In this document: piece by piece, positions 58,572 to 62,780 of the stretch
Layout of the letters: every line of letters begins with the position of its first letter
Numbering within the stretch: position 1 is the stretch's first letter
NCBI RefSeq assembly: GCF_001870225.1
Contig: NZ_CP017675.1
Span: 2,027,372-2,091,371, forward strand
DNA: 64,000 nucleotides
Reading direction: 5' to 3'
Source of the DNA: Gloeomargarita lithophora Alchichica-D10
GTDB taxonomy: Bacteria > Cyanobacteriota > Cyanobacteriia > Gloeomargaritales > Gloeomargaritaceae
The notes under the pieces: generated by a model
Seen by the model: the letters and a program-made list of their open reading frames with translations, nothing else
Database searches by the model: none
What the model was told of the DNA's origin: nothing
Position numbers and translations under genes: made by a program

Positions 58572-61196
58572 CTAGCTTTTCTTGCGGCGGGTGGTTGCCT
58601 TTTTACGGGGGTTTTGGCTCCGTTGGGCTAACAATTCCACCGCCTGCGCCAGGGTAACTGTTTCCGGGGTGGTGCCGTCGGGTAGCCCCGCATTGACCTT
58701 GCCGTGTTTGACGTAGTAGCCGTAGGGACCTTGGTAAACATTCACCGGCTCCTTGTCCTGGGGATGGGCACCCAGTTCCCGCAAGGGCGTACTACTGCTT
58801 CGTCCTCGACTGGCCTTGGGTTGCGCCAATAGTTCTAAGGCTCGCTCCAGGGTGACGCTCAACACATCATCTTCGGGTTTGAGGGAACGGAAGTCTTGGC
58901 TTTCTTTACCCCGGTCGTGGACGACATAGGGGCCAAACCGCCCCAGTCCGGCTTTGACTTTGCCGCCTGCGGGATGCGCCCCCAGGGCACGGGGCAAGGC
59001 CAACAACCCCACCGCCATTTCTAACGTCACCTGCTCCGGGGTTACGCCCTTGGGTAGGGAGGCGCGCTTGGGTTTTTTGTTGATTTCCGTGGCTTCCCCC
59101 AACTGCACGTAGGGGCCATAGGTGCCGGTGAGGGCAAAAATCGGTTCGCCGGTTTCCGGGTGCATCCCCAATTTGGTGGGGCCTGCGGTTTTTTGGCGCA
59201 GGAGTTCTTCGATGACCTGGGGGGTCAATTGCGCCGGAGTCAGGTCTTTGGGCAGGGAAACCGTGACCACTTCGCCGTTTTGGGGAATTTCCACATAGGG
59301 GCCATAACGGGTGCTGATGTGAACCTTGGCTTCTCCCAGTCCTTCTAACTCCAAGGTGCGGGCGGTGGTGGGGCTGATGGTGGCCGCCTGGGTTTTTACC
59401 CGGCTGGCTAACCCCTGTTCCCCCAGGTAAAATTCCTGCAAATAAGGCAACCACGGTACTTCTCCCCCGGCGATGTCATCGAGGGTTTGTTCCATTTGAG
59501 CGGTGAACCCGGTGTCCACCAAGTGCGGGAAATTTTGCTCCAGGAGGGTGGTGACGGCAAAGGCGGTGAAGGTGGGCACCAGGGCATTCCCCTCGGTTTG
59601 GGCGTAGCCCCGGTCTTGGATGGTGCCGATAATGCTGGCGTAGGTACTGGGACGGCCAACCCCTTCGCTCTCCAGGGTTTTTACCAGGGAGGCTTCCGTG
59701 TAGCGGTCGGGGGGCTGGGTTTCGTGGCGCAGGGCTTCCAGGCGGGTGCATTGGGGCGTATCCCCGACGGCTAGGGGCGGCAGGCTAATTTCCTGGTCAT
59801 CCAGGGCGGCTTGCGGGTCGTCGGAGCCTTCCACGTAGGCCCGGAAAAAGCCGGGGAAATCAATGCGTTTGCCGCTGGTGCGAAATTCCGCCTCCCCCGC
59901 CTGGATCGTCACCGTCAGATGGGTTAAGCGGGCTTCCGCCATCTGGGTCGCCACCGTGCGCTTCCAGATTAAATCGTATAAGGCCAATTCCCGCCCGGTT
60001 AAACCGGTTACCTGCGGGGTGCGAAAATCACTCCCGGCGGGGCGAATAGCTTCGTGGGCTTCCTGGGCACCCTTGCTTTGGGTAGCGTACTGCCGGGGCT
60101 TGGGGCTGAGGTAACTTGCGCCATACATTTGCTGGACACAACTGCGGGCAGCGGTGATGGCCTGCTGGGATAAATGCACCGAGTCGGTACGCATATAGGT
60201 GATATACCCCTGTTCGTACAAATTCTGGGCAATTCGCATGGTGTCCCGCGTGGAGAGCCGCAGTTTGCGGTTGGCTTCCTGTTGCAGGGTGGAGGTAGTA
60301 AAAGGGGGGGCGGGTTTGCGCTGGACTTGCCGGGATTCCAGGTCTTGCACCCGCCAGGTTGACCCCTGGAGTTGCTGGCAGAGGGTTTCCGCCTGGGTTT
60401 GATCCAAGACCCGCACCCGGCGCCGGGGCAGAAGTTCGCCGGTTTGGGGGTCAAAATCCTGACCGGTGGCGAGTTTTACCCCCCCCAGGGCCACCAACCG
60501 GGACTCAAAGGGGGTCTGGTGGGCGGTCAACTGCGCCTTCAAATCCCAGTATTCTGCTGTCCGAAATGCCCGCCTCTGCCGCTCCCTCTGCACGAGTAAC
60601 CGCACCGCTACCGATTGCACCCGCCCGGCGGACAACCCCGGCCCGACCTTTTGCCACAGCAGGGGCGAGAGGGTGTAGCCCACCAAGCGATCCAGGATGC
60701 GGCGGGTTTCCTGCGCCCGCACCAACCCCTCATCCACCTGGCGGCACTGTTGCAGGGCGGCATGGATCGCCTCTTGGGTAATTTCGTGGAAGACCATGCG
60801 CTTCACCGGCACCCGGGGTTGCAAAATCTGCGCCAGATGCCAGCTAATGCTTTCCCCCTCCCGGTCTTCGTCCGTTGCCAGGATCAATTCTTTAACTTCT
60901 TTTAAGGCGGCCTTGAGGTTGCTGACCACCTTCTTTTTCTCCCCCGGCACGATGTACAGGGGTTCAAAGCTCTGTTGGACGTTCACGCCTAGGGTTGCCC
61001 AATCCTGGCCTTTGAGTTCGGCGGGGATGTCGCTGGCGGATTGGGGTAAATCCCGCACATGACCCATCGAAGCTTCCACCCGATAATTGTCCGGTAAATA
61101 CTGGCGGATGGTGCGGGCTTTCGTGGGGGATTCCACGATCACTAGGGTGGGCTGGCCGTTGAGCGGCGGGGCAGAGGTGGCACGGGAACGGGGCAT
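58572..61196 (-). CDS. topA: DNA topoisomerase I
   Basis: An 874-residue type IA topoisomerase that relaxes negative supercoils. The TOPRIM domain starts LVIVESPTKARTIRQYLPD and has ILATDEDREGE. The active-site tyrosine is in GYITYMRTDSVHLS. The C-terminal 300 residues contain repeated FGPYV and GTYGPYV modules (for example GRFGPYVVHD, QGPYGYYVKHG) in place of the zinc fingers of E. coli TopA, and a Lys/Arg tail. It lies downstream of the calcyanin candidate on the same strand with a 50-base gap. Confidence 0.97.
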   Translation of the reverse strand: MPRSRATSAPPLNGQPTLVIVESPTKARTIRQYLPDNYRVEASMGHVRDLPQSASDIPAELKGQDWATLGVNVQQSFEPLYIVPGEKKKVVSNLKAALKEVKELILATDEDREGESISWHLAQILQPRVPVKRMVFHEITQEAIHAALQQCRQVDEGLVRAQETRRILDRLVGYTLSPLLWQKVGPGLSAGRVQSVAVRLLVQRERQRRAFRTAEYWDLKAQLTAHQTPFESRLVALGGVKLATGQDFDPQTGELLPRRRVRVLDQTQAETLCQQLQGSTWRVQDLESRQVQRKPAPPFTTSTLQQEANRKLRLSTRDTMRIAQNLYEQGYITYMRTDSVHLSQQAITAARSCVQQMYGASYLSPKPRQYATQSKGAQEAHEAIRPAGSDFRTPQVTGLTGRELALYDLIWKRTVATQMAEARLTHLTVTIQAGEAEFRTSGKRIDFPGFFRAYVEGSDDPQAALDDQEISLPPLAVGDTPQCTRLEALRHETQPPDRYTEASLVKTLESEGVGRPSTYASIIGTIQDRGYAQTEGNALVPTFTAFAVTTLLEQNFPHLVDTGFTAQMEQTLDDIAGGEVPWLPYLQEFYLGEQGLASRVKTQAATISPTTARTLELEGLGEAKVHISTRYGPYVEIPQNGEVVTVSLPKDLTPAQLTPQVIEELLRQKTAGPTKLGMHPETGEPIFALTGTYGPYVQLGEATEINKKPKRASLPKGVTPEQVTLEMAVGLLALPRALGAHPAGGKVKAGLGRFGPYVVHDRGKESQDFRSLKPEDDVLSVTLERALELLAQPKASRGRSSSTPLRELGAHPQDKEPVNVYQGPYGYYVKHGKVNAGLPDGTTPETVTLAQAVELLAQRSQNPRKKATTRRKKS

Positions 61197-61246
61197 AGGT
61201 CAAAGGATGTGCGTAAATGGCAGGTGAACTTGCTACCCATTATGGG

Positions 61247-62284
61247 CTAGTTTTGGGGAGCCTCTTCCTTGGGATAACAAAGTTCGGGGTCAAGCGGCAA
61301 GTCGGTCGGGGGTGAAATGGGTGCGGCTGTTGCCAGTGGATCGGGCACCCCGGCGGCATTCTGCCAACTAATTTTGCGCCCAAAATAGGTGCCAAGCCTG
61401 GCGCCATACATTTGCCCCTGCGCCCCGGCAACCAAACGCCCCACCGTACCCCCAATCAATTCGCTGGTGGTTTCCCCGGAATGGTCAATCGCCCATAAAC
61501 GATCGGCCTGGGCTTGTCCCTGTTTGATTTGTTGGTAGGCATTGGTGCCCAACTGTCCCCCCACCGCATCCCCGACAAAATTCCCCACCCAAGCCCCCAC
61601 CGGACCAAACGTTACCTGTCCCACCACCGTTCCCACCACCGCACCCATGCTACTGCCCATATAATCCGAGGCCAACCGTTGCATCCGGGCATCCACGGTT
61701 TCGAGGGGGTGGCCGCCCGCCAAGGTTTCCCCCAATTGTGCCCCCATTACCCGCCCGGTGAAGCCCCCCACCTGGGCACCAATCACCGCCCCCACCGGCC
61801 CTAGGGTCACCGCTCCGGCCACGCCGCCAATGGCAGAACCCACCACATGACCGCCCATCAGCCCTACCATTCCCCCGCCGATGGTTTGCAAATTCTGCGG
61901 CTCCGGGATAATCGCCTGGAGACGTACCGTTACCTGCTGGGTCACCCCGACCCGGCTTTGGTCAAGTTCAATGAATATTTTTTCAACTACGATTATTTGG
62001 GAGGCAACCGTATCCTGCGCCCGATGCACCCACTGATTCACCAGCACTTGGTTGGTGGCCACGGCGGTCTGCACCTGCTCTTGCACCTCCGGGGGAACCA
62101 CCTGTTGCACCGTCTGCTCCAGGGTGTGTTGCGCTTGGGTCGCCGTATCCTGTACCGAAGTGATGGCCTCGGTAATCTGGCTTTTGGTCTGCTCGGCCAG
62201 TTTTTGCAAATCCTCTAGGGTCTGTTCCCACCAGGGAAATTCGGGTTTGGGGAACATCATGGCGGTTACCAAAAAATAGTCCAT
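61247..62284 (-). CDS. ccyA: Calcyanin-like protein with three glycine-zipper segments
   Basis: A 345-residue protein. Residues 1-130 are a helical, Gln/Thr/Val-rich N-terminal region with no named domain. Then come three glycine-zipper segments: 136-186 (MVGLMGGHVVGSAIGG and on), 210-246 (GSSMGAVVGTVVGQVT and on) and 278-302 (IGGTVGRLVAGAQGQMYGAR), with Gly mostly every fourth residue. LGPVGAVIGAQVGGFTG in the first and FGPVGAWVGNFVGD in the second are clearly repeated. The end LPLDPELCYPKEE is short and acidic. A variable N-terminus followed by three long glycine zippers is the published layout of calcyanin, tied to intracellular amorphous calcium carbonate. Start 62284; ATG 62260 (MMFPKPEF) is an alternative. 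An ordinary zipper protein remains the other possibility. Confidence 0.8.
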   Translation of the reverse strand: MDYFLVTAMMFPKPEFPWWEQTLEDLQKLAEQTKSQITEAITSVQDTATQAQHTLEQTVQQVVPPEVQEQVQTAVATNQVLVNQWVHRAQDTVASQIIVVEKIFIELDQSRVGVTQQVTVRLQAIIPEPQNLQTIGGGMVGLMGGHVVGSAIGGVAGAVTLGPVGAVIGAQVGGFTGRVMGAQLGETLAGGHPLETVDARMQRLASDYMGSSMGAVVGTVVGQVTFGPVGAWVGNFVGDAVGGQLGTNAYQQIKQGQAQADRLWAIDHSGETTSELIGGTVGRLVAGAQGQMYGARLGTYFGRKISWQNAAGVPDPLATAAPISPPTDLPLDPELCYPKEEAPQN

Positions 62285-62327: not shown

Positions 62328-62780
62328 ATGATATTGCGCCGTTTAACCGTTGAGGATTTAGCCGCCGTGCTGGCTTTGGATCACTTGGCCTTGAAGGGCT
62401 GGTGGTCGCCGGGGCAATATCAAGAAGAATTACAAAAATCCCACACCTTATTCGTGGGCGGGGAACAGGGGGCAACCCTGGTGAGCATGGGGGCGGCCTG
62501 GTTAATCCTAGATGAAACCCATATTGTCCTTTTGGCCGTCCATCCCCAATACCGGGGCAAAGGATGGGGGCGGTTGACGCTAAATTACTTGTTACAAACC
62601 GCACCGCCGACCATGCGCCATACTACTCTGGAAGTACGTTCCCAAAATGCCATTGCCTTAAATTTATACCAATCCCTGGGATTTCAAATCCTCGGTCGCC
62701 GTCCCCATTACTATCAAAAACCCGAAGATGATGCGTTGATCCTATGGCGGCACCAGGAACCCACTCTTGGCGGGGATTGA
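62328..62780 (+). CDS. rimI: GNAT acetyltransferase, RimI type
   Basis: A 150-residue GNAT protein resembling RimI, the ribosomal protein alanine N-acetyltransferase. The acetyl-CoA site is AVHPQYRGKGWGRLTLNYLL (the Q/RxxGxG/A motif). The start TVEDLAAVLALD and the SQNAIALNLYQSLGFQILGRRPHYYQ end are standard. It is transcribed away from the calcyanin candidate, with only 43 bases between the starts. Confidence 0.88.
   Translation: MILRRLTVEDLAAVLALDHLALKGWWSPGQYQEELQKSHTLFVGGEQGATLVSMGAAWLILDETHIVLLAVHPQYRGKGWGRLTLNYLLQTAPPTMRHTTLEVRSQNAIALNLYQSLGFQILGRRPHYYQKPEDDALILWRHQEPTLGGD

What the first reader, a model, noticed from the sequence alone, without database searches (positions are those of the whole stretch)
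61247..62284. Calcyanin candidate: three long glycine zippers after a variable N-terminus
The sequence directly shows three Gly-every-fourth-residue segments in residues 136-302, the first two sharing an LGPVGA/FGPVGA core. Established knowledge: calcyanin, the marker of cyanobacteria forming intracellular amorphous Ca-carbonate, has a variable N-terminal domain and three such zippers. The inference is that this strain forms intracellular carbonates. The N-terminus here lacks a CoBaHMA-like domain, so it would be one of the less-described types.
Basis: partly seen in the sequence, partly recalled or inferred. Interest (0 to 1): 0.95.

Follow-up and report, generated by a model that had tools for sequence, protein, structure and literature searches.

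The report
Calcyanin gene of Gloeomargarita lithophora
The gene encodes calcyanin, the known marker protein of cyanobacteria that store amorphous calcium carbonate inside their cells, and it lies in the very species in which that trait was discovered, so the find is correct but not new.

Summary
Three glycine-zipper repeats far exceed chance (21 Gly-Gly pairs at lag 4; shuffles 8.9 +/- 2.3, 0/20,000). A profile of calcyanin-like proteins from other cyanobacteria, named ones being Microcystis aeruginosa and Thermosynechococcus, hits it at E 9.8e-33 across the zippers; it is the only full match in the genome. The N-terminus is helical, has no HMA/CoBaHMA-type domain and no detectable homology to the Microcystis N-terminus. 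Both published Gloeomargarita 16S primers match this genome exactly and no other tested, so the host is G. lithophora, a known former of intracellular carbonate. The gene is therefore already-described calcyanin. Two additions. (1) ccyA sits between a GNAT gene and topA; three congeners keep that junction without ccyA or any remnant. (2) A Ca2+/cation-exchanger paralogue occurs in exactly the four carriers, not in those congeners or the sister genus, and is nearest to the exchanger encoded next to ccyA in Microcystis. Most likely role: zipper helices coat or anchor the carbonate granule while the exchanger supplies calcium; identity is shown, mechanism inferred.

The parts
61247..62284 (-). 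ccyA, calcyanin CDS (345 aa; 337 or 336 aa if it starts at Met9/Met10 like its orthologues)
61880..62284 (-). N-terminal region (residues 1-135), predicted helical at low confidence, no HMA/CoBaHMA-type domain; shared only with Gloeomargarita orthologues
61718..61879 (-). Glycine zipper 1 (residues 136-189), two helices split at TLGPVGA
61538..61669 (-). Glycine zipper 2 (residues 206-249), two helices split at TFGPVGA
61364..61477 (-). Glycine zipper 3 (residues 270-307), ending in GRKISW (GRKIDW is the family consensus)
58572..61196 (-). topA (DNA topoisomerase I), same strand, 50 bp downstream of ccyA; flanking marker of the occupied/empty site
62328..62780 (+). GNAT acetyltransferase (rimI-like), divergent; the other flanking marker

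Best explanation
The gene is ccyA, encoding calcyanin, in Gloeomargarita lithophora (identity about 0.97). The three zippers probably fold as three helical hairpins that pack through Gly/Ala/Ser faces and self-associate on, or anchor to, the surface that bounds the amorphous Ca-carbonate granule, while the variable N-terminus targets the protein. A partner Ca2+/cation exchanger would move Ca2+ to the site (mechanism about 0.35). Shown here: family membership, zipper repeats, purifying selection, co-occurrence with one exchanger paralogue, and host identity. Inferred: hairpin packing, location at the granule and any direct role in mineral formation.
For: A profile without Gloeomargarita hits at E 9.8e-33 over the zipper region. 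Invariant Gly/Pro columns across 17 homologues with different kinds of N-terminus. Named homologues in Microcystis aeruginosa and Thermosynechococcus, genera with documented intracellular carbonate (PMC12836880 for Microcystis; PMC6087745 for T. elongatus). Both Gloeomargarita 16S primers match only this genome. An Na_Ca_ex gene directly follows ccyA in Microcystis. The matching exchanger paralogue is present in 4/4 ccyA+ and 0/3 ccyA- Gloeomargarita, and the seven best matches to it among 386 genomes all lie in ccyA+ genomes. AlphaFold2 gives helix-GP-helix three times. PMC6087745 reports a ~2.5 nm non-bilayer envelope around the granules in this species.
Against: The model's confidence is low (mean pLDDT 55-57, pTM 0.34), so the hairpin packing is unproven. 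Nothing here shows location or Ca binding. The exchanger link is not universal: ccyA+ genomes of family f19 have no close match, and two of them carry a P-type ATPase nearby instead. Profile members were gathered starting from the window protein, so the profile test is not fully independent.
Confidence: 0.93

Rival explanations
1. It is an ordinary glycine-zipper envelope protein (Gly-zipper_Omp / OmpA-associated type), not calcyanin.
For: PF13488 Gly-zipper_Omp is the only Pfam family above its cut-off (E 3.5e-10), with weak sub-cut-off NCBIfam hits to OmpA-like lipoproteins.
Against: No OmpA domain is hit and no lipobox or signal peptide is apparent on reading the sequence. Three long zippers align column by column with the calcyanin set. 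The profile hit is E 9.8e-33 and unique in the genome. The co-occurring calcium exchanger is not expected of an OmpA-type lipoprotein.
Confidence: 0.03
2. It is calcyanin, but it acts as a regulator or partner of Ca2+ transport (sensor or scaffold for the exchanger in the membrane) and not as a part of the granule surface.
For: Gene adjacency with Na_Ca_ex in Microcystis and co-occurrence with the exchanger paralogue in Gloeomargarita. The published abstract, from memory, reports more intracellular Ca when ccyA is overexpressed in strains without inclusions.
Against: No exchanger near ccyA in Gloeomargarita itself. Four ccyA+ genomes of family f19 lack a close exchanger match. No direct evidence separates this from the granule-surface model.
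Confidence: 0.35
3. The zippers insert in a membrane as a pore or channel for Ca2+ or bicarbonate.
For: Glycine zippers are known membrane helix-packing motifs (general knowledge); the helices are 17-33 residues long and the segments are rich in Gly, Ala and Val.
Against: The bounding layer of the granules is not a lipid bilayer (PMC6087745), and no pore-forming domain family was hit.
Confidence: 0.12

Closest known systems
Calcyanin (CcyA) family, Benzerara et al. 2022 Genome Biol Evol (evac026; paper not held, described from memory)
   Same: C-terminal domain of three long glycine zippers, variable N-terminus, patchy distribution in cyanobacteria, link to Ca transport genes, host forms intracellular carbonate.
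   Different: Nothing that can be established; by memory the G. lithophora protein is one of the founding members with its own N-terminal type.
Microcystis aeruginosa calcyanin homologue (L026, L028)
   Same: Three aligned zippers, 42% identity over the zipper domain; non-HMA N-terminus.
   Different: N-terminus not detectably homologous; gene directly followed by an Na_Ca_ex exchanger, whereas in Gloeomargarita it lies between a GNAT gene and topA.
Thermosynechococcus calcyanin homologue (L027)
   Same: Three aligned zippers, 36% identity over the zipper domain.
   Different: Carries an HMA_2-type (CoBaHMA-like) N-terminal domain (PF19991, E 2.6e-11), absent here.
Gly-zipper_Omp (PF13488) proteins
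   Same: Glycine-zipper motif, above the Pfam cut-off.
   Different: Pfam's zipper model is 46 positions long; no OmpA or lipoprotein context here.

Membership tests
Calcyanin (CcyA) | C-terminal domain of three long glycine zippers that align with other calcyanins | tested here: met
   Profile E 9.8e-33 over model positions 114-322; 16 invariant Gly/Pro columns and one invariant Glu in A6; lag-4 Gly statistics.
Calcyanin (CcyA) | Variable N-terminal domain of one of a few types | tested here: met
   Helical, not HMA-type, conserved only among Gloeomargarita orthologues. That it is the published 'Y' type is memory only.
Calcyanin (CcyA) | Found in cyanobacteria that form intracellular carbonate, with patchy distribution | tested here: met
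   15 of 386 phylum genomes carry a long zipper-domain homologue (my count); named ones are Microcystis and Thermosynechococcus; host identified as G. lithophora with known inclusions (PMC4085569, PMC6087745).
Calcyanin (CcyA) | Association with Ca2+/HCO3- transport genes | tested here: met
   Exchanger next to ccyA in Microcystis; co-occurring paralogue in Gloeomargarita. Bicarbonate transporters not tested.
Calcyanin (CcyA) | Functional role in intracellular carbonate formation | not testable with these tools
   Needs a mutant and microscopy.
Calcyanin with CoBaHMA N-terminus | HMA/CoBaHMA domain at the N-terminus | tested here: not met
   No HMA or HMA_2 hit for this protein, while HMA_2 hits L027, L014 and L015.
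Gly-zipper_Omp / OmpA-like lipoproteins | OmpA domain or lipoprotein context beside the zipper | tested here: not met
   Only the zipper motif scores above a cut-off; YiaD/PdsO/CmpA models fall far below theirs.

The most novel reading that the evidence does not exclude
In Gloeomargarita, ccyA and one specific Ca2+/cation-exchanger paralogue form a two-gene unit that is gained or lost together although the genes are unlinked. Three congeners with an intact GNAT-topA junction and no ccyA would then be natural ccyA-minus controls, predicted not to form intracellular carbonate.
Probability: 0.55. Interest if true: 0.4.

Novelty: already known. Interest (0 to 1): 0.22.

Why it matters
It confirms that a zipper pattern read by eye recovers calcyanin in the founding organism. 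The useful by-product is a within-genus presence/absence pair at one defined site, with a co-occurring calcium exchanger. Comparing carriers with their natural non-carrying congeners could test whether ccyA is required for the trait without confounding by deep phylogeny.

Tried and rejected
The Gloeomargarita and Microcystis N-termini were tested for homology and rejected (local scores within the shuffle range), although phmmer had extended an alignment into that region. Structure prediction gave low-confidence models, so no fold search was run. PDB sequence search found only HMA-domain metal ATPases (matching the HMA-type members of the profile) and one unrelated weak hit, and no solved zipper domain. 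GDT1 (PF01169) genes occur in carriers and non-carriers alike. The founding calcyanin paper is not held, and no held paper mentions CoBaHMA.

Full report
Observation. The ORF at 61247-62284 lies on the minus strand and encodes 345 aa. Its three orthologues in the genus share the Met-Met of MMFP as their likely start, so the real product is probably 336-337 aa. Gly at every fourth residue is far beyond chance: 21 lag-4 pairs against 8.9 +/- 2.3, and five pure-Gly runs of at least four against 0.3, none of 20,000 shuffles reaching either value. Zippers 1 and 2 each consist of two half-zippers joined at LGPVGA / FGPVGA; zipper 3 is less pure. dN/dS of 0.15-0.22 among four orthologues shows a protein under constraint, with more amino-acid change in the N-terminus than in the zipper part.

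Family. A single-sequence search of 386 genomes of the phylum gave 22 genomes with hits; I count 15 with a long zipper-domain homologue. One of these (L014, genome G380) appears to lack the third zipper. The named scan identified homologues as Microcystis aeruginosa (L026, L028) and Thermosynechococcus (L027); L026, L028 and L027 are the same proteins as L003, L004 and L006 from the unnamed set. A profile of eight homologues without any Gloeomargarita sequence was run on the order: it hits the window protein at E 9.8e-33 over model positions 114-322, which is the zipper part, and nothing else in the genome matches in full. The alignment of the zipper domain has 16 invariant Gly/Pro columns and one invariant Glu over 17 sequences with differing N-termini. 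Caveat: profile members were gathered with this protein as the starting query; the independent element is the identity of the named genera, which include documented formers of intracellular carbonate (Thermosynechococcus elongatus BP-1 and G. lithophora in PMC6087745; Microcystis aeruginosa PCC 7806 in PMC12836880). The individual named genomes here are not those strains.

N-terminus. Pfam finds no HMA domain in this protein but finds HMA_2 in the Thermosynechococcus-type, L015 and L014 homologues. The Gloeomargarita N-terminus is predicted helical and is not detectably related to the Microcystis one. This agrees with the family's published description as having several N-terminal types; that the G. 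lithophora type is the one called 'Y' is from memory, because the founding paper is not held.

Host. The genome is a single 3,049,282-base contig. Two published 16S primers for the Gloeomargarita clade (PMC4085569) were searched: 69F-Gloeo matches exactly in this genome and in no other of 386, and 1227R-Gloeo matches exactly in this genome and in no other of eight in the order. The two sites face each other about 1.2 kb apart (809236-809254 minus, 808059-808077 plus), as expected for the amplicon. The species is therefore Gloeomargarita lithophora or a very near relative; the chromosome length also fits my memory of strain Alchichica-D10. The species forms intracellular Ca-carbonate bounded by a ~2.5 nm layer that is not a lipid bilayer (PMC6087745; that study used strain C7). 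So gene, family and phenotype are already known together.

Neighbourhood and presence/absence. In the order, 4 of 8 genomes carry the gene. In carriers, ccyA lies on the same strand as topA with a near-constant gap of about 50 bp, which suggests co-transcription (inference). The GNAT gene is the other neighbour in the window genome and in G390; in G085 it is 1.5 kb away, and in G389 about 14 kb away. In three non-carrying congeners (G386, G387, G388) the GNAT and topA genes lie next to each other on one contig and the gap between them (short in two, about 0.8 kb of other sequence in G387) shows no trace of ccyA by tblastn or blastn, so the absence is not an assembly gap. The fourth non-carrier, G391, belongs to a sister genus and its topA was not on the stretch fetched.

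Calcium exchanger. In Microcystis the gene directly after ccyA is an Na_Ca_ex exchanger (PF01699, E 3.6e-37). G. lithophora has two such exchangers. One of them (G000:C1:2420344-2421441, minus) and its orthologues are 55-57% identical to the Microcystis one, against 42-46% for the other type, and it is present in all four ccyA+ Gloeomargarita and in none of the three ccyA- congeners or the sister genus (assignment by identity, the tree itself left the deep forks open). Among 386 genomes, the seven best matches to it all come from ccyA+ genomes, and in four of these it lies within a few kb of ccyA. Under random draws this has probability 2.7e-11 by genome and about 8e-5 after collapsing to genera and leaving out the query's own; shared ancestry makes these figures optimistic. 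Four ccyA+ genomes of family f19 show no such close match; two of them (L061, L062) have a P-type ATPase near ccyA instead. The pattern agrees with the published statement, from memory, that ccyA correlates with Ca transport genes.

Structure and mechanism. AlphaFold2 gave low confidence for the full protein (mean pLDDT 57, pTM 0.34) and for the zipper domain alone (55, 0.34), but both models show helix-GP-helix three times, i.e. three hairpins. No solved structure covers the zipper domain. The mechanism I favour is that these hairpins self-associate on, or anchor to, the layer bounding the carbonate granule while a partner exchanger provides Ca2+; the chief alternative is a regulatory or scaffold role for the transporter. 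Neither is settled by sequence.

Verdict. The empty-site comparison and the exchanger co-occurrence are modest additions; whether they have been published I could not check.

Noticed in passing
L051, L052, L053 (genomes G388, G386, G387), GNAT-topA junction: Three Gloeomargarita congeners have the GNAT-topA junction without ccyA and without any remnant, giving natural non-carriers inside the genus.
   Followed up: yes
G000:C1:2420344-2421441 (L072), minus strand, outside the window: An Na_Ca_ex exchanger paralogue present only in ccyA+ Gloeomargarita and closest to the exchanger next to ccyA in Microcystis.
   Followed up: yes
L061:6802-9333 and L062:2112-4604: In family f19 genomes a P-type ATPase lies near ccyA, with small proteins nearby that begin with an HMA/CoBaHMA-like HxxPxRxRxR motif but give no Pfam HMA hit.
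   Followed up: partly
L014:1435-2586 (genome G380): A homologue with an HMA_2 N-terminus and only two zippers (third missing), near a close exchanger match and a P-type ATPase with HMA_2.
   Followed up: partly
L023:1408-2073 and L024:1408-2091: Genomes of the Microcystis group also encode a second, shorter zipper protein (about 220 aa) related to the first calcyanin zipper.
   Followed up: no
L064:2686-3612 (genome G085), also hit in G389: A stand-alone HMA_2 protein of about 309 aa in two ccyA+ Gloeomargarita genomes, similar to the N-terminal domain of HMA-type calcyanins.
   Followed up: partly
61197-61246: The 50-bp gap between ccyA and topA is nearly constant in all four carriers, suggesting co-transcription.
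   Followed up: partly
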